From positions 1-64,000 of the forward strand of contig NZ_CANNGP010000010.1 in the NCBI RefSeq assembly GCF_947504105.1: a stretch of DNA of 64,000 nt, read 5' to 3'. The notes beneath the pieces were generated by a model. That model had not been told where the DNA came from and searched no databases. It saw nothing but the letters and a program-made list of their open reading frames with translations. Of this stretch, positions 1 to 8,194 are shown in pieces. How positions within the stretch are numbered: the first letter of the stretch is position 1; every line of letters starts with the position of its first letter. The translations under genes and the position numbers were made by a program. This DNA is from an uncultured Tateyamaria sp. GTDB lineage: Bacteria; Pseudomonadota; Alphaproteobacteria; Rhodobacterales; Rhodobacteraceae.

Positions 1-198
1 TGAGAATAGCAGCCTAAATGAACCCCTGATCCATCTTAAACCGGCTGCAAATTGGTCGAAAATCTAGGACCACCTCTCAAAGCCCCAACCGGTTGGGTTG
101 TCTCACAAATCCAATCTTGCGGCCGCAGCCTACGAAAAGAGCCAAAAATATGTTAGAATACGCTTATTGAAACAACGAATATTAAAGGAACTGATGAC

Positions 199-423
199 AT
201 GGCCGACCTTGATCGTAAGAACCTAAAATTTGATGTTGATACCGCTTCTTTGGCTGACCTTCAAAAAATTCAAAGCATGATTATGGGCCGTATTGTGCAG
301 GACATTCAGGCAAAGGCTGATCCCACCGCGATGTATGACAGCCACGGCTCCAATCATACAAATCACTCGGACGCAGTTGCAGCGGCCGCCTTGGCGGCGC
401 GAGTGAACCCCGGAAACCGCTAA
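199..423 (+). CDS. Candidate RiPP precursor peptide (74 aa)
   Basis: Small peptide immediately upstream of a radical SAM/SPASM enzyme and an HExxH protein, which is the gene order of cyclophane-type RiPP cassettes. Residues 1-45 are charged and helix-prone (leader-like). The C-terminal part holds YDS (46-48), HGS (49-51), HTN (53-55) and HSD (56-58), each an aromatic residue followed by two small or polar ones, then an Ala-rich tail ending NPGNR. Three-residue units starting with an aromatic residue are what triceptide-forming radical SAM enzymes crosslink. An AAAGGA ribosome-binding site lies about 9 bases before the ATG. No signal peptide and no obvious cleavage motif are visible. The precursor role is inferred from context and motif pattern. 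Confidence 0.75.
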   Translation: MADLDRKNLKFDVDTASLADLQKIQSMIMGRIVQDIQAKADPTAMYDSHGSNHTNHSDAVAAAALAARVNPGNR

Positions 424-430
424 CCGGATT

Positions 431-472
431 GGTCGGGCCAGATAGCTGATCTGGTTCGGCCCAAATTTTTTT
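431..472 (+). terminator. Hairpin with T-run between precursor and radical SAM genes
   Basis: GGGCC (435-439) can pair with GGCCC (458-462) around an inner AGAT/ATCT stem, and seven T residues follow at 466-472. This looks like an intrinsic terminator placed inside the cassette. Leaky termination here would give more precursor mRNA than enzyme mRNA, as in many RiPP operons; that role is inference. Confidence 0.55.
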
Positions 473-486
473 AAAGGTTGATCGAT

Positions 487-1650
487 ATGAATAGCACGTC
501 CTTTCGGGCAGTGCCTGATCGCGCGCCGTTGCGTTGGATAATTTTGAAGATCCATCAGCGTTGTAATCTCAATTGCTCTTATTGCTACGTGTACAACCGA
601 GGCGATGATAGCTGGAAATCGCGTCCCAAGCAGATGGGAAACGATGTTATTGATCAGGTCTGCAAACTCATCGTCGAGCATTGCGCACGATACACAATTG
701 ACGAGTTTGTCATAGAGCTTCACGGTGGCGAACCCATGCTCGTGGGCAAGACCAGGTTTGTCGAGATCATCAATCGGATCCGCACTGCCTGCGCGCCCCT
801 GTCCATCAAATTCCTGATGCAGACCAATGGCACACTGCTGGATCAGGAGTGGAGCGATATTCTGGCAGAACACGCGGTTGCCGTAGGTATCAGTGTTGAT
901 GGCCCTGCCGAATTCGCGGACCAGAAGCGGTTCTACCACAATGGCAAAGGCTCAACCAACGATGTGTTGCGTCGCCTTTCGTCGGTGAAGTCCCATCCGG
1001 ATAGGCCGTTTACGCATGGCTGCCTGGCCGTGATCGACCCGACGATCCCGGGCGCAGATATGATAGACTGGTTGGTGGAAAACGACATAATGTTTGCCGA
1101 CCTGTTGCTTCCTCTTGGCAACCGAGCCAACCCGCCTGACGGATGGACCGGCCCCGAGCCCTATACAAAGTATATGCTGGACGCGTTCGAGCGTTGGTGG
1201 GCGCTGGACGGAGATGCACCGCATATCCGTTTCTTCGAGATGATGATCCGCGCGCATCTGGGGTACAAACCTGAACTTGATGCATTGGGCGGAGACCTTG
1301 GTGCCTTATGTGTCGTGGAAACCAACGGAGCCATCGGCATCTCGGATGTGATCAGCGTGTGCGGTGGGTATAGCGGCACTGATCTCATCACCATCTGGGA
1401 CACCAGTCTGGATCAGCATGTTGACAAGCTTGACGTCGACCTTGTTCAGGCGCCGTGCGCCGCTTGCAAATCATGCCCGGAGTTCACGGCCTGTAACGGA
1501 GGCTACCTACCTCATCGCTGGGATGGGACAGGTTTCGACAACACCTCGCTCTACTGCGAGACACTTTCTGCCCTATCTGCGCGCATCAGGGAGGCAATCA
1601 CCTCTTCCCTGCCTGCCAGCATGATCAAAACAAAAGAGGTTGCAGCATGA
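487..1650 (+). CDS. Radical SAM/SPASM peptide-modifying enzyme (FxsB/XyeB-like)
   Basis: About 387 residues. The N-terminal radical SAM core carries CNLNCSYC (Cys26, Cys30, Cys33), the CX3CX2C ligands of the SAM-binding [4Fe-4S] cluster, followed by the LHGGEP motif. The C-terminal SPASM region has scattered cysteines, including a CX2CX2CX5C run and the GGYLPHRW signature seen in cyclophane-forming FxsB/XyeB-type enzymes. These enzymes join an aromatic side chain to the beta-carbon of a residue two positions on. The ATG at 487 is chosen because AAAGG sits 9 bases upstream; a TTG three codons earlier is possible. The stop overlaps the next gene (ATGA). Substrate is inferred to be the adjacent peptide. 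Confidence 0.85.
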   Translation: MNSTSFRAVPDRAPLRWIILKIHQRCNLNCSYCYVYNRGDDSWKSRPKQMGNDVIDQVCKLIVEHCARYTIDEFVIELHGGEPMLVGKTRFVEIINRIRTACAPLSIKFLMQTNGTLLDQEWSDILAEHAVAVGISVDGPAEFADQKRFYHNGKGSTNDVLRRLSSVKSHPDRPFTHGCLAVIDPTIPGADMIDWLVENDIMFADLLLPLGNRANPPDGWTGPEPYTKYMLDAFERWWALDGDAPHIRFFEMMIRAHLGYKPELDALGGDLGALCVVETNGAIGISDVISVCGGYSGTDLITIWDTSLDQHVDKLDVDLVQAPCAACKSCPEFTACNGGYLPHRWDGTGFDNTSLYCETLSALSARIREAITSSLPASMIKTKEVAA

Positions 1651-2768
1651 CCTCCCCGAACTTCTCGGCTTTTGAATGCTTTGCCTGCGCCGACAATGCC
1701 CGTTCTGACCCTTTGTTCGGTCTGGTCGTCCAAGGCTATGCAAACTCTGTAATATCCAGAATGATCGAGGATCCAAATCACAACAGTCTGGCCCCCGCAC
1801 TTGAGGGTTGGATGAACCGGTTGCAGCCATTGAGCGCAACATGGCACGCCAGTATCTCAAAACTTGGAAGGCGTATCTTTGACGAAGGCCGAGGTTGCGA
1901 TCAAGAGCGCGTGGGAAGGTTGCTGCTGGATCTGAGCGACAGATTGGACAAGGTAGACTTTGCTTTTGAACTGAAGAGCGGGCTGCCCATTGTGCATCAC
2001 GGTCGGATACACAAGGCGAAAGGTCCGGTGCGTCTGGTCAAAGAGAATGGACAGGTTGCGGTCCATGGTCTGGATGCAGGTTTGCCACTCTCCTCAGACG
2101 GGTCAATCGCAATGGTCGAAACCAGACAAACGGTAGAGTCATTGTGCCGCGATGGTGCGCCGGCCGTGCCGCTGAATCTATCAAAGATTGCCGATTACGG
2201 ATGGGCAGCCGAGGTGTCCGAGGGGATAAGCCTGATGTCTAAGGTCAACCCAAGTTATGAGATTTGGGTTCGGCGCCTTCTCAGCACATTAATCCTGACA
2301 GAACGGCTGGAAAACCGCACCTGTTCGGGCAGTTGGTCCGACACATCAGGAACGGTCTACATGTCCCAACCCAATTCGTTGCTCGAAGTAGGAGAGGTGC
2401 TGATCCACGAATGCGCTCACCAACACTTTCACCTTGCCTGCCGGGTTTTCCCCATGAAAACCGATACGGAAAACGGTCGATATTTCTCGCCTCCCGTTGG
2501 TCGTGAACGACCGCTTGATATGATACTGATCGCCTATCATGCGTTTGCCAACGTACTGACCTATTACGAATGCGCGTTCGACATGTCACTCGGCGACCAA
2601 CTTTCTCACAATAGGTACAGGAGTTTTAGTCAAGAGGTCGCCGTGCTTGAAAGCTATCTCGACAATAACAAGGGCCTATCGGAATTGGGGCGCACCATTT
2701 TCTCAACGCTTCGCACGTGCAGACAAGAGCGCATCTGCGCGATGCCGGGCGTAGCCGCGGATGCCTAA
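1647..2768 (+). CDS. HExxH-motif protein, putative alpha-ketoglutarate-dependent peptide beta-hydroxylase
   Basis: 373 residues, starting within the stop of the radical SAM gene (ATGA), so the two are probably co-translated. HECAH at residues 254-258 is a metal-binding HExxH. It is followed by a YFSPP...RPLDMILIAYHAFANV segment that matches the conserved downstream block of the aKG-HExxH family. In this family HExxH binds iron for alpha-ketoglutarate-dependent beta-hydroxylation rather than proteolysis, and members are found next to or fused to FxsB-type radical SAM enzymes. No signal peptide is seen. Substrate is inferred to be the upstream 74-residue peptide, before or after crosslinking. 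A true peptidase role is the main alternative. Confidence 0.75.
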   Translation: MTSPNFSAFECFACADNARSDPLFGLVVQGYANSVISRMIEDPNHNSLAPALEGWMNRLQPLSATWHASISKLGRRIFDEGRGCDQERVGRLLLDLSDRLDKVDFAFELKSGLPIVHHGRIHKAKGPVRLVKENGQVAVHGLDAGLPLSSDGSIAMVETRQTVESLCRDGAPAVPLNLSKIADYGWAAEVSEGISLMSKVNPSYEIWVRRLLSTLILTERLENRTCSGSWSDTSGTVYMSQPNSLLEVGEVLIHECAHQHFHLACRVFPMKTDTENGRYFSPPVGRERPLDMILIAYHAFANVLTYYECAFDMSLGDQLSHNRYRSFSQEVAVLESYLDNNKGLSELGRTIFSTLRTCRQERICAMPGVAADA

Positions 2769-4559: not shown

Positions 4560-5546
4560 CTATTTCAGTGCCTTATCGGTGATCTGGTGCGTCCACGCGC
4601 CCTCGGGTGCAGCAGAAATCACAGGGTCCGACCCGCCAGACAGCAGCGATTGCACTGTCCGCTCGTAGTCCGCAGGCAACAACGCCCCGTTTGATCCGGC
4701 TGTCAGCTTGGCAACCTCGCCCATCATACGCTTCTGGTGCTTTTCGGTCTGCGCTCCGGTCTCGTCGTACTCCAGCACGATATCGGCAGCTTCGTCCGGG
4801 TTTTCCTCGGCATATTTCCAGCCCTTCATCGAGGCGCGGACAAAGCGCACCATCTTGTCCTCAAAAGCCGGGTCGGTCAGGTTTTCTTCAAGCACATAGA
4901 GCCCGTCTTCCAGCGTGGCGACGCCATTGTCTTCGTACTTGAAGACAGTCAGGTCGTCGGGCGACAAGCCCGCGTCGATCACCTGCCAGTATTCGTTGTA
5001 GGTCATGGTTGATACACAAGCCGCCTGTCCGTTCAGTATCGGGTCGACGTTGAAGCCCTGCTTCAGCACTTCGACACCCGCATCCGAGCCGTCGGTGGGG
5101 ATCTCAAGCTGGCTCATCCAGGACAGGAACGGGAATTCGTTGCCAAAGAACCAGACACCCAGCGTCTTGCCCGGGAAGTCTGCCGTTGTCTCAACGCCCG
5201 CGTCCTTGCGGCAGGTCAGCATCATGCCGGACGACTTGAACGGTTGCGCAATATTGACCATCGGCAGGCCCTTTTCACGGGCAGCCAAGGCGGCTGGCAT
5301 CCACTCGACCGTCACATCGGCACCACCACCGGCCAGCACCTGCGTAGGCGCGATGTCAGGACCGCCAGGCTTGACGGTGACGTTCAAGTCTTCCTCACCA
5401 TAGAACCCTTTTTCCAGCGCCACATAGTAGCCCGCGAACTGGGCTTGTGTGACCCACTTCAGTTGCAGCGTGACATCATCTGCCGCCATGGCCGCACTGG
5501 CAACGAGCGATAGTGCCGCGGCTCCGAATGTTGCTTTGATCTTCAT
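4560..5546 (-). CDS. ABC transporter substrate-binding protein, NMT1/THI5-like
   Basis: 328 residues with a classical signal peptide (KIKATFGAAALSLVASAAMA, cleaved about residue 22), so periplasmic. The DVTLQLKWVTQAQFAGYYVA start and GGADVTVEWMP are typical of the NMT1/THI5-like fold, which binds pyrimidine-type and related small ligands for import. The start at 5546 is preferred because TTGGAGGG precedes it. It is the last gene of the importer set, 15 bases after a permease. Linkage to dihydropyrimidine dehydrogenase, dihydropyrimidinase and amidohydrolase suggests a pyrimidine, hydantoin or ureide ligand; that is inference. Confidence 0.85.
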   Translation of the reverse strand: MKIKATFGAAALSLVASAAMAADDVTLQLKWVTQAQFAGYYVALEKGFYGEEDLNVTVKPGGPDIAPTQVLAGGGADVTVEWMPAALAAREKGLPMVNIAQPFKSSGMMLTCRKDAGVETTADFPGKTLGVWFFGNEFPFLSWMSQLEIPTDGSDAGVEVLKQGFNVDPILNGQAACVSTMTYNEYWQVIDAGLSPDDLTVFKYEDNGVATLEDGLYVLEENLTDPAFEDKMVRFVRASMKGWKYAEENPDEAADIVLEYDETGAQTEKHQKRMMGEVAKLTAGSNGALLPADYERTVQSLLSGGSDPVISAAPEGAWTHQITDKALK

Positions 5547-5573
5547 GATACCCTCCAAGGTGATTGCAGTTTT

Positions 5574-6413
5574 TTATGCGCGTTGTGACGGGTGCCAGAA
5601 GGTCACCCGCTTTTCGATCCAGGCCACGATGCCATAGAATGCCGTGCCCGCCAAAGCTGCCACCGCGATCTCAGCCCAGACAAGGTCAATGCTCAAGCTT
5701 CCCACGCCGGTCGAGATGCGGAAACCCATACCGCGTGTGGGGGAGCCGAAATATTCGGCAACAATGGCCCCGATCAGGGCCAGCGTGGTGGCGATTTTCA
5801 GGCCGTTGAAAACGAACGGCATTGCCGCGGGCAATCTCAGGCGGAACAGGGTTTGCCAGTATCCGGCTGCATATGTCCGCATCAGATCGCGTTGCATGGC
5901 CGAGGCTTCGTTCAAACCCTGCACCTTGTTCACGAGGATCGGAAAGAAGACCATGACCACCACAACCGCTGCCTTCGACTGCCAATCGAAGCCGAACCAG
6001 TTCACCATGATCGGCGCGATGCCGACGATGGGCAAGGCCGCGACAAAGTTGCCAATGGGCAGAAGCCCCCTTGTCAGGAAAGCTGACCTGTCGATCAGGA
6101 TTGCCGCGACAAAGGCAGCGATGGCCCCGATGGCAAACCCGCGCAACGCTCCCTTGACTACAGTCTGCCGGAAGTCGATCAACAATATATCGGTGGACCC
6201 GGCAAATGTCTGTGCCACGGTCGACGGCGCGGGCAGGATCACAGGCGAGATGCCAAAGCCGCGCACCAGCGCCTCCCAAACGACCAAAAGGGTCACGCCA
6301 AAGATCACCGGGACAGCAATGCGGACGACCCTGTTGTCGCTTCGGCGCGCAAGCCAAGTGTTCAGTGCCCAACCACCCAGCCAGACCAGCAATGCAAGGA
6401 CAAGCCAACTCAT
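5574..6413 (-). CDS. ABC transporter permease (SsuC/ThiX-like)
   Basis: 279 residues with about six membrane helices. It carries a binding-protein-dependent transport EAA-type loop (around AMQRDLMRTYAAGYWQTLF...LPAAMPFVFNGLKI) that contacts the ATPase. Together with the neighbouring permease it should form a heterodimeric channel in the inner membrane. The start codon overlaps the stop of the upstream permease (ATGA at 6410-6413), so the two are translationally coupled. Substrate unproven; the pyrimidine context is given with the binding protein. Confidence 0.85.
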   Translation of the reverse strand: MSWLVLALLVWLGGWALNTWLARRSDNRVVRIAVPVIFGVTLLVVWEALVRGFGISPVILPAPSTVAQTFAGSTDILLIDFRQTVVKGALRGFAIGAIAAFVAAILIDRSAFLTRGLLPIGNFVAALPIVGIAPIMVNWFGFDWQSKAAVVVVMVFFPILVNKVQGLNEASAMQRDLMRTYAAGYWQTLFRLRLPAAMPFVFNGLKIATTLALIGAIVAEYFGSPTRGMGFRISTGVGSLSIDLVWAEIAVAALAGTAFYGIVAWIEKRVTFWHPSQRA

Positions 6414-7342
6414 GTCGCCATCCCCATGCGTTTAAGGGTCAGCCGCTGGATCAGATCAAGCAGTGTCACTAGCGCGCCCGCCAGCACGGCCGCCGCGAAC
6501 AACGCTGACCAGATAGCAAGCGGTGTCCCAAACTGGTCCCCGATCAGGATACGGGCGCCTAGACCGCTGATGGCGCCCGTGGGCAACTCGCCTACAATGG
6601 TGCCGACCAATGCGGCCGCGATCCCGACTTTGAGAGAGGTAAAGAGATAGGGCACCGAAGCCGGTAGTCGCAAGCGCAGGAAACTTTGCAAGCTATTGGC
6701 GTTGTAGGTCCGGAGCAAGTCAAGCTGGGACGATTGGGGCGCACGCAGCCCTTTTACCATTCCGACCAACACCGGGAAGAAACACAAATAGGCCGAGATA
6801 ATCGCCTTGGGCACCCCGCGACCCTCGATCCCCAACTGGGACGACAGCACGATGATCATGGGGGCCAAAGCCACAATGGGAATGGTCTGGCTGATGATGG
6901 CCCAGGGCATCAGGCTAAGTTGCGCGGTACGGGAATAGACGATTGCCACAGCTCCCACGATACCCAGAAGTGTGCCAAGCGCAAAGCCCCACAGCGTTGA
7001 TTGCAAGGTGATCCAGCCATGGTAGATCAGCCCGCGTTTGGACCATGGCCGCCCCTTGGCAATCATGGCACCTGTGGTCTTCCACAACTCCTGACCCACC
7101 TGTGCCGGTGTCGGCAACCGCGGGCGCTCAAGCGCATAGCCCAGTCCAACATGCTTGGAATTGTCCAGCATCAGGCGCCACACCGAGATCTCACGCCGCG
7201 GCACGGATCCTTCGGGCACAATAGCGTCCCCGGCCCGCTCGGCCTGATCCAGCGCCACCCGCACGTTCATGGGCGCCACAGCCAGATACCAGATGCCAAC
7301 AATCACGGTCAAAACAGTCAAGACAGGCAGCAATGATCGCAT
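6410..7342 (-). CDS. ABC transporter permease (SsuC/ThiX-like), second subunit
   Basis: About 310 residues. An N-terminal membrane segment and a periplasmic stretch are followed by five further helices with the EAA loop (SSQLDLLRTYNANSLQSFL...LPASVPYLFTSLKVG). Longer than its partner through the N-terminal extension. ATG at 7342 is preferred to the TTG one codon earlier. It lies 69 bases downstream of the ATPase and overlaps the next permease by 4 bases. Probable partner in a heterodimeric importer of the NMT1 class. Confidence 0.85.
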   Translation of the reverse strand: MRSLLPVLTVLTVIVGIWYLAVAPMNVRVALDQAERAGDAIVPEGSVPRREISVWRLMLDNSKHVGLGYALERPRLPTPAQVGQELWKTTGAMIAKGRPWSKRGLIYHGWITLQSTLWGFALGTLLGIVGAVAIVYSRTAQLSLMPWAIISQTIPIVALAPMIIVLSSQLGIEGRGVPKAIISAYLCFFPVLVGMVKGLRAPQSSQLDLLRTYNANSLQSFLRLRLPASVPYLFTSLKVGIAAALVGTIVGELPTGAISGLGARILIGDQFGTPLAIWSALFAAAVLAGALVTLLDLIQRLTLKRMGMAT

Positions 7343-7411
7343 CAAGACATCCCCTGCTTCATCTCGCCAAACAGACTTTCCCCGTGGAGTGGCTGTCCAC
7401 CAGGCCGACGC

Positions 7412-8194
7412 TCAGTCATAGGCATGGCCCGCCCGCAAACCATCTCGCACCCTGTGCGCGATTTCCAGAAATTCGGGGCTTTCCCTGATATCCAGCGGTC
7501 TTTCTTTTGGCAGCGTGCTTTCAATAACATCCGTGATGCGGCCCGGTCGTGGCGACATCACCACGATCTTTGTCGACAGATATACCGCCTCGGGGATCGA
7601 GTGGGTGACAAAGGCGATGGTCTTCTCCGTCCGGGCCCAAAGCTGCAACAGCTGCTCATTCAAATGATCCCGCACAATCTCATCGAGCGCACCAAAGGGT
7701 TCGTCCATCAGCAGAATGTCGGCATCAAAGGCCAAGGCACGGGCTATCGATGCACGTTGCTGCATCCCGCCTGACAACTGCCACGGAAACTTCTTCTCGA
7801 AGCCTGATAGCTCTACCAACTCCAATGTTCGCGCCACGCGTTCGGCTTGCTCGACCTTCGAATATCCCATGATCTCAAGCGGCAGCGAGATATTCCGCCC
7901 GATCGTCCGCCAAGGATACAGCCCCGCCGCCTGAAACACATAGCCATAAGCCCGCGCCTTGCGCGCCTCTTCGGGCGTGGTGCCGTTCACGGTGATGCCG
8001 CCGCCTGTTGGTTGTTCCAGATCGGCCATGCAGCGCAGAAAGGTGGTCTTGCCACAACCCGACGGGCCGATGAACGATACAAAATCGCCCTTCCCGATAT
8101 CCAGCGACACACCTTTCAAAGCGTGAACCGGGCCATCATTTGTTTGAAAGGTCAGATCGAGCGCGTTGGCTTGAATTACGGATTTTTCAGTCAC
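7412..8194 (-). CDS. ABC transporter ATP-binding protein (nitrate/sulfonate/taurine class)
   Basis: 260 residues with Walker A GPSGCGKTT, signature LSGGMQQR, Walker B ILLMDEPFGALD and the H-loop VTHSIPEAV. It powers the two downstream permeases. It starts at a GTG whose GTGA overlaps the stop of the HExxH peptidase gene, tying that gene to the importer operon. Family assignment is firm; the transported compound is inferred from the pyrimidine-degradation neighbours. Confidence 0.9.
   Translation of the reverse strand: MTEKSVIQANALDLTFQTNDGPVHALKGVSLDIGKGDFVSFIGPSGCGKTTFLRCMADLEQPTGGGITVNGTTPEEARKARAYGYVFQAAGLYPWRTIGRNISLPLEIMGYSKVEQAERVARTLELVELSGFEKKFPWQLSGGMQQRASIARALAFDADILLMDEPFGALDEIVRDHLNEQLLQLWARTEKTIAFVTHSIPEAVYLSTKIVVMSPRPGRITDVIESTLPKERPLDIRESPEFLEIAHRVRDGLRAGHAYD

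What the first reader, a model, noticed from the sequence alone, without database searches (positions are those of the whole stretch)
199..2768. Three-gene RiPP cassette: peptide, radical SAM/SPASM enzyme and stand-alone HExxH beta-hydroxylase-type protein
Seen: a 74-residue peptide, a CX3CX2C radical SAM protein with an FxsB/XyeB-like GGYLPHRW tail, and an HECAH protein joined to it by ATGA. Known: fused radical SAM/aKG-HExxH enzymes have been reported to form cyclophanes and beta-hydroxylate peptides. Inference: here the two activities are encoded separately and act in turn on one His-rich core, giving a crosslinked, hydroxylated peptide. I do not recognise this precursor family. The lower GC than the neighbours hints at acquisition by transfer.
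Basis: partly seen in the sequence, partly recalled or inferred. Interest (0 to 1): 0.88.

Follow-up and report, generated by a model that had tools for sequence, protein, structure and literature searches.

The report
Peptide crosslinking and hydroxylating gene trio
A small bacterial gene set encodes a peptide plus two separate enzymes that probably tie its tyrosine and histidine side chains into small rings and then oxidise it; the same trio occurs in unrelated bacteria, so it looks like a real, uncharacterised branch of a known class of modified peptides.

Summary
Window 199-423 encodes a 74-aa peptide, 487-1650 a radical SAM/SPASM enzyme, 1647-2768 a stand-alone aKG-HExxH-type protein (over the NCBIfam cut-off; predicted fold matches ChlB-HExxH and SjiH). 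The trio recurs in order in two Tateyamaria, two Paludibacterium, Collimonas and a Rhodococcus plasmid, with an invariant YD-x-H-x-S-x-H peptide core; outside Tateyamaria most of the rest of the peptide diverges. Synonymous change dominates and the two enzyme genes overlap by ATGA. The rSAM is nearest to ChlB, YhhB and FxsB (cyclophane formers) but misses the YhhB and FxsB cut-offs; no Pfam or NCBIfam model fits the peptide. Best reading: an unfused triceptide-like pathway. The rSAM probably makes tandem three-residue cyclophanes (YDS, HGS, HTN, perhaps HSD) and the HExxH protein probably beta-hydroxylates that core; both products are inferred. GC supports recent transfer only weakly; patchy distribution supports it better.

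The parts
82..198 (+). Upstream region shared with the two Tateyamaria trio loci, with an AAAGGA ribosome-binding-like site at 184-189; presumably holds the promoter (inferred; the sigma-70 scan found none here).
   Evidence: DNA similarity to L017/L018 starts at window 82; alignment; promoter scan
199..423 (+). Precursor peptide, 74 aa; presumed leader about residues 1-45, core YDSHGSNHTNHSD (46-58, bases 334-372), then a short Ala-rich tail
431..461 (+). Hairpin followed by a T-run between peptide and rSAM genes. Hairpins of different sequence stand at the same place in L017 (no T-run) and L018 (T-run); perhaps a partial terminator that lets the peptide be made in excess (inferred)
   Evidence: (z of the intergenic stretches -2.46, -3.69, -3.46)
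487..1650 (+). Radical SAM/SPASM peptide maturase, 387 aa (CxxxCxxC at bases 562-585); related to ChlB/YhhB/FxsB; C275 and C292 invariant in the trio rows, absent in ChlB and YhhB-fused rows
1647..2768 (+). Stand-alone aKG-HExxH-type protein, 373 aa, HECAH at bases 2406-2420

Best explanation
The trio is an unfused, triceptide-like RiPP pathway. Step 1 (inferred from homology and core pattern): the rSAM/SPASM enzyme binds the peptide's leader, abstracts a beta-hydrogen at the residue two places after each core aromatic, and joins that carbon to the ring, giving tandem three-residue cyclophanes at Y46-D-S48, H49-G-S51, H53-T-N55 and perhaps H56-S-D58. Step 2 (inferred): the HExxH protein, translated from the overlapping gene, acts as an iron and alpha-ketoglutarate oxygenase and beta-hydroxylates one or more residues of the ringed core, the invariant D47 and the histidines being the first candidates. 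Shown here: the three genes, their conservation as a unit across alpha- and betaproteobacteria and an actinobacterium, purifying selection, the invariant core and the enzyme families. Removal of the leader, export and biological role are unknown; the conserved unit holds no protease or transporter gene.
For: Same trio, same order in 7 distinct loci: window, L017, L018, L019, L020, L021 and L015. Peptide core Y46 D47 H49 S51 H53 invariant in 7 of 7 rows. At +2 from each core Tyr/His stands S, S, N, D (window), K, S, R (Rhodococcus) or R, S, R (Paludibacterium, Collimonas); two YhhA peptides read here have YDR and HNR, and a YhhB is reported to join C3(Tyr) and C2(His) to C-beta of Arg (PMC11002830, passages; the peptide used there was not seen). 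rSAM profile against PDB: ChlB rSAM domain E 1.2e-73. HExxH over TIGR04267 cut-off; predicted model (pLDDT 83.6) finds SjiH (E 4.9e-10) and ChlB-HExxH (1.3e-8), next hit at 0.3. [quoted passage not shown]
Against: No product has been seen. rSAM is well under the YhhB and FxsB cut-offs. The window peptide is not significantly similar to YhhA (231 and 119 of 2000 shuffles as good); the Paludibacterium, Collimonas and Rhodococcus peptides are somewhat (1 to 15 of 2000 in 4 pairs), so the ring rule is carried over through them. X48 varies (S, K, R), and Lys is not among the acceptors named in the passages read. HExxH proteins also do other chemistry (oxidative backbone cleavage, PMC12636437). Fold matches are loose (rmsd 6.3-10.1, TM 0.49-0.65). 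The third iron ligand could not be assigned, and residues 297, 298 and 302 differ from the YhhB-fused rows.
Confidence: 0.68

Rival explanations
1. Ring formation as above, but the HExxH protein carries out another oxidation or cuts the backbone (as PflC/PosC do), releasing the core from its tail or leader; this would also fit the absence of a protease gene from the unit.
For: PflC/PosC are stand-alone HEXXH proteins that hydroxylate Gln and oxidatively cleave the backbone (PMC12636437); the conserved unit holds only the three genes; peptides carry a tail after the core in 7 of 7 loci.
Against: The tail shows no invariant column, unlike the ARMD motif of PflA; structural nearest neighbours ChlB-HExxH and SjiH (deposited as radical SAM core domain-containing protein) come from rSAM-linked systems.
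Confidence: 0.15
2. The rSAM makes another bond (for example Tyr-to-His across YDxH, or an epimerisation or ether) rather than i to i+2 cyclophanes.
For: Invariant Y-x-x-H and H-x-x-x-H spacing fits other links too; C275 and C292, invariant in 7 of 7 trio rows, are absent from 3 of 3 YhhB-fused rows and from ChlB, suggesting a differing auxiliary-cluster site; the trio rSAMs fall outside the group holding YhhB. Anaerobic sulfatase maturases are relatives as well.
Against: The three best named families (YhhB, FxsB, XyeB) and the best solved relative, ChlB, are cyclophane formers; +2 residues are mostly of known acceptor type.
Confidence: 0.15
3. Not a RiPP: the small ORF is a regulator or chaperone-like partner of the two enzymes.
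For: No export or protease gene in the unit; no Pfam or NCBIfam family for the peptide.
Against: Core conserved while, outside Tateyamaria, most of the rest diverges, in 7 loci, each time before an rSAM maturase.
Confidence: 0.02

Closest known systems
ChlB (fused rSAM/aKG-HExxH; PDB 9gm3, 8s5f)
   Same: Both enzyme parts are homologous: rSAM E 2.9e-54 single sequence, 1.2e-73 profile; HExxH profile 1.3e-7 and fold match 1.3e-8.
   Different: One fused protein there (PMC12636437), two genes here; ChlB lacks Cys at 275 and 292 (alignment).
YhhABC triceptide system (NF041705, NF041707, NF041706)
   Same: Peptide + cyclophane rSAM + separate oxygenase in Vibrio; YDR/HNR triads like the YDR/HSR of Paludibacterium and Collimonas peptides.
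   Different: Oxygenase is a 2OG-Fe(II) YhhC in Vibrio or a fused HExxH domain in 3 of 3 long YhhB scanned; trio peptides and the window rSAM miss the YhhA/YhhB models.
Split rSAM + HEXXH pairs on rhizobial plasmids (L036, L039)
   Same: Separate, overlapping rSAM and HExxH genes; HExxH over TIGR04267 cut-off in both.
   Different: In L036 the upstream protein is long with repeated EMHDQTHSEG-type units; rSAM 31-33% identical; their HExxH groups with the fused type.
Stand-alone aKG-HExxH enzymes PflC/PosC, BipH (BpmH), PesO
   Same: Unfused HExxH oxygenases acting on RiPP precursors (PMC12636437 sections; PMC12707348, PMC12257519 (BpmH predicted only), PMC13060819 passages).
   Different: Partners there are MNIO, nitroreductase, arginase-like or B12-rSAM enzymes, not a cyclophane-type SPASM rSAM.

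Membership tests
aKG-HExxH peptide beta-hydroxylase | Over TIGR04267 curated cut-off | tested here: met
   65.9 bits against 40
aKG-HExxH peptide beta-hydroxylase | ChlB-HExxH fold | tested here: met
   Foldseek E 1.3e-8 and, to SjiH, 4.9e-10 with a predicted model; TM 0.54-0.65
aKG-HExxH peptide beta-hydroxylase | 2-His-1-carboxylate iron site (definition recalled) | tested here: inconclusive
   H254/H258 in 19 of 19 rows; third ligand not assignable: acid at 275 in the 7 trio proteins and in ChlH and SjiH, not in all relatives
aKG-HExxH peptide beta-hydroxylase | alpha-ketoglutarate-dependent beta-hydroxylation | not testable with these tools
   needs protein
Triceptide | rSAM/SPASM of the three-residue-cyclophane group | tested here: inconclusive
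   nearest named families YhhB, FxsB, XyeB and nearest solved ChlB, but no curated cut-off of these is met
Triceptide | aromatic i to C-beta i+2 crosslink in product | not testable with these tools
   core pattern compatible only
YhhABC | precursor matches NF041705 | tested here: not met
   no hit for the window peptide (E up to 1) or for the 6 related peptides (3 at E up to 0.5; 3 at E up to 0.001); two YhhA do hit
YhhABC | rSAM over NF041707 cut-off | tested here: not met
   283.5 against 445 bits; L019 rSAM 295.2
YhhABC | YhhC 2OG-Fe(II) oxygenase | tested here: not met
   third protein hits only TIGR04267
FxsB | rSAM over TIGR04269 cut-off | tested here: not met
   255.1 against 370 bits

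The most novel reading that the evidence does not exclude
A previously undescribed triceptide family whose core YDxHxSxH carries a ladder of three or four adjacent Tyr/His cyclophanes, built by rSAM enzymes with two additional invariant cysteines at a presumed cluster site, and then decorated by exchangeable oxygenases: one HExxH protein in Tateyamaria and Rhodococcus, two in Paludibacterium and Collimonas, with a tyrosinase-like gene nearby in two Tateyamaria loci.
Probability: 0.4. Interest if true: 0.62.

Novelty: new variant of a known kind. Interest (0 to 1): 0.5.

Why it matters
Fused rSAM/aKG-HExxH proteins do ring formation and hydroxylation in one chain. A conserved unfused pair with its own short substrate would let order, dependence and substrate recognition of the two steps be tested separately, and adds a defined precursor family (YDxHxSxH) that Pfam and NCBIfam models miss. 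If the ladder is real, it is a densely ringed His/Tyr peptide made by three small genes, handy for peptide engineering.

Tried and rejected
Weak Pfam hits of the peptide (DUF3618, EspC; E about 0.01, under cut-offs) are dismissed; two related peptides have none. A role of the tyrosinase-like gene as an essential part: it lies upstream in L017/L018 only, was not found in the own genome (an assembly of 214 contigs) nor in the window, L015, L019, L020 and L021 stretches, and DNA similarity to the window starts 117 bases before the peptide. GC as proof of transfer: rejected as weak. A 3-His iron site (H298 in place of a carboxylate): considered because H298 and N302 are invariant in the 7 trio proteins, dropped because ChlH has no acid shared with its relatives at those columns and no coordinates could be read. 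The viral-contig scan gave 1 weak locus, not used further. The SjiH paper search listed only arthritis papers among its best 20. Of the 7 genome-contig loci, L022 (no related peptide found; rSAM 31% identical and 3 kb away) and L023 (two HExxH genes, no rSAM hit) lack the trio. BLAST at E 0.01 found the peptide in L017-L020 and L015 but not in L021, where a motif search found it. In the rSAM tree two of three phylum hits (L031, L033) were left out because the script picked no ORF for them.
Full report
WHAT IS THERE. Window 199-423, 487-1650 and 1647-2768 (all +) encode a 74-aa peptide, a 387-aa radical SAM/SPASM protein and a 373-aa HExxH protein. The first base of the window is the first base of contig C10 of the own genome, so only 198 bases upstream of the peptide are known. 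Downstream, on the other strand, lie a polysaccharide deacetylase (PF01522, 2843-3832) and an ABC system with an NMT1-like binding protein (4560-8194); neither is in the Tateyamaria trio stretches by DNA similarity.

ENZYMES. The rSAM's best named families are NF041707 YhhB (283.5 bits, cut-off 445) and TIGR04269 FxsB (255.1, cut-off 370), so it is near them but in neither as curated. Its nearest solved relative is the rSAM domain of ChlB (2.9e-54 single sequence; 1.2e-73 with the trio profile); anaerobic sulfatase maturases follow (3e-35). The HExxH protein passes TIGR04267, 'aKG-HExxH-type peptide beta-hydroxylase' (65.9 bits, cut-off 40), and has no Pfam match at E up to 1. An AlphaFold2 model from 9 aligned rows (mean pLDDT 83.6, pTM 0.86) finds SjiH-Ni (22ob, E 4.9e-10, TM 0.65) and ChlB-HExxH (8s5f, four chains, best E 1.3e-8, TM 0.54); rmsd is 6.3-10.1, so the match is of overall fold; the next hit is at E 0.3. 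Sequence profiles agree (22nu 6e-9, 8s5f 1.3e-7).

CONSERVATION OF THE TRIO. One genome-contig scan with the window and Rhodococcus HExxH proteins gave 7 loci: 5 of 7 carry the whole trio (L017 Tateyamaria omphalii, L018 Tateyamaria sp., L019 a Paludibacterium MAG, L020 P. purpuratum, L021 Collimonas), 2 of 7 do not (L022, L023). A plasmid of Rhodococcus sp. DMU1 adds another (L015). That makes 7 distinct loci with the window; the same-genus hits L046 and L045 are identical to L017 and L018 over 4161 bases. Identity of the window rSAM: 93% to Tateyamaria, 46-49% to the others; HExxH 79-81% and, over the BLAST-aligned part, 27-34%. The rSAM and HExxH genes overlap by ATGA in 6 of 6 loci measured; in Rhodococcus the annotated HExxH start leaves a 44-base gap, but an in-frame ATG sits in an ATGA at the rSAM stop (read). 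Peptides align with invariant D12, L21, I24, Y46, D47, H49, S51, H53 in 7 of 7 rows; the two Tateyamaria peptides are 97-99% identical to the window's, the other four 20-27%. Local alignment scores of the window peptide to the Rhodococcus, two Paludibacterium and Collimonas peptides were reached by 0 of 2000 shuffles in each of 4 pairs. Between window and the two Tateyamaria loci, dN/dS is 0.015-0.023, 0.036-0.037 and 0.089-0.090 for peptide, rSAM and HExxH (dS above 1 for the enzymes, so rough). DNA similarity to those loci covers only window 82 to 2713/2767: the unit is the trio plus about 117 bases upstream, and the flanks differ.

DISTRIBUTION. Peptide: 1 of 295 family genomes (own). HExxH: 2 of 390 order genomes, one the own and the other weak (E 1.6e-4). 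rSAM profile at E 1e-60 or better: 4 of 398 phylum genomes, only the own above 250 bits. Within the genus, 3 of 20 genomes have the peptide and the same 3 have the trio-type rSAM above 720 bits (a fourth, G454, at 269 bits, is another kind). One of these 3 carries the T. omphalii stretch without a difference. Patchy distribution and a 49% identical rSAM on an actinobacterial plasmid speak for horizontal movement at some time; GC is weak evidence (0.538 against 0.599, 4 of 246 windows as low or lower; deacetylase 0.533; Tateyamaria trios 0.546-0.557 against flanks 0.569-0.577; Collimonas 0.491 against 0.507; in Paludibacterium and Rhodococcus the trio is at or above its flanks).

HOW IT PROBABLY WORKS. 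In the core, each Tyr/His starts a triad: YDS, HGS, HTN, HSD (window); YDK, HTS, HLR (Rhodococcus); YDR, HGS, HSR (Paludibacterium, Collimonas). PMC11002830 (passages) names Ser, Asn, Asp, Arg and Ala as residues crosslinked at their C-beta by three-residue cyclophane enzymes (Lys, present in Rhodococcus, is not named there), and states that a YhhB joins C3 of Tyr and C2 of His to C-beta of Arg; two YhhA peptides read here (R. etli, Vibrio) have YDR and HNR. The window peptide itself is not significantly like these YhhA (231 and 119 of 2000 shuffles as good); one Paludibacterium, the Collimonas and the Rhodococcus peptides are somewhat (1, 4, 7 and 15 of 2000 in 4 pairs). Ring formation by the rSAM at i/i+2 is therefore the first choice (inference). 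The ChlB HExxH part hydroxylates Asp and His of a peptide that already carries a cyclophane (PMC12636437), hence the order rings first, hydroxylation second (inference); D47, invariant inside the first triad, and the His residues are the first candidates. A hairpin with a T-run stands between peptide and rSAM; hairpins of different sequence stand at the same place in L017 (without a T-run) and L018 (z of the stretches -2.46, -3.69, -3.46), which could be a partial terminator (inference).

VARIATION. L019, L020 and L021 each have a second HExxH gene downstream, 3 of 3 over the TIGR04267 cut-off (47.9, 41.9, 43.2 bits). tblastn with the L019 copy finds none in the window, L017, L018 and L015 stretches. 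In a tree of 19 HExxH rows these second copies group with rhizobial split and YhhB-fused HExxH domains (8 rows, 99/96), apart from the trio's own HExxH, which lie in the other 11 rows together with L016, L022 and L023. L017 and L018 have a tyrosinase-like gene upstream (PF00264 in L017; 94% identical in L018), in L017 followed by a 102-aa ORF.

PLACE OF THE rSAM. In a 21-row tree the trio rSAMs lie outside a 12-row group (93/91, not starred) that holds YhhB and the rhizobial split type; whether they form one clade is unresolved (they stand in an open fork with L041), and long branches make the tree rough. All 7 trio rSAMs have Cys at 275 and 292; 0 of 3 YhhB-fused rows have either; of the other 11 rows one (L035) has both, seven have one of the two and three none. 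ChlB has neither.

KNOWN OR NEW. YhhABC (Vibrio L040: peptide, rSAM, 2OG-Fe(II) oxygenase) is the same logic with another oxygenase; 3 of 3 long YhhB proteins scanned (R. etli, Novosphingobium, R. tumorigenes) are rSAM fused to HExxH; two rhizobial plasmids and a Paracoccus plasmid have split rSAM/HEXXH pairs. Stand-alone HExxH enzymes are characterised in other RiPP classes. I found no description of this trio or precursor in searches, of which I saw listings and, for five papers, passages or sections; the library lacks most subscription papers, including the key ChlB and triceptide-landscape papers. Verdict: a real, uncharacterised variant of a known kind; interest moderate.

Noticed in passing
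G000:C9:14677-15771 (L014 1465-2979, minus strand): A second YhhB/FxsB-like rSAM in the same genome beside a peptide with repeated GHARSL units and an unclassified ORF overlapping the rSAM stop.
   Followed up: partly
L036 1460-5321 (Rhizobium lusitanum plasmid p_2): A 380-480 aa protein with many EMHDQTHSEG-type repeats directly before a split rSAM/HExxH pair: looks like a giant multi-core precursor.
   Followed up: partly
L039 998-5261 (Rhizobium ruizarguesonis plasmid p4): A hypothetical protein of about 630 aa directly before a split rSAM/HEXXH pair; its sequence was not read.
   Followed up: no
L019 7085-8161, L020 6452-7627, L021 3231-4346: Second HExxH gene downstream of the trio in betaproteobacteria, of the other HExxH lineage.
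   Followed up: partly
L017 2496-4250, L018 2498-3922: Tyrosinase-like gene (and in L017 a 102-aa ORF) directly upstream of the trio in Tateyamaria, not at the window locus as far as the contig reaches.
   Followed up: partly
L015 5492-6544: Caspase-domain protein convergent with the Rhodococcus trio.
   Followed up: no
L038, L042, L043, L040, L044: YhhB is fused to an HExxH domain in R. etli, Novosphingobium and R. tumorigenes, and unfused beside a 2OG oxygenase in Vibrio; in L044 a short yhhB is followed by IS21 genes.
   Followed up: partly
L023 89-1177 and 5740-6861 (Parvularcula MAG): Two HExxH genes in one locus without a detected rSAM.
   Followed up: no
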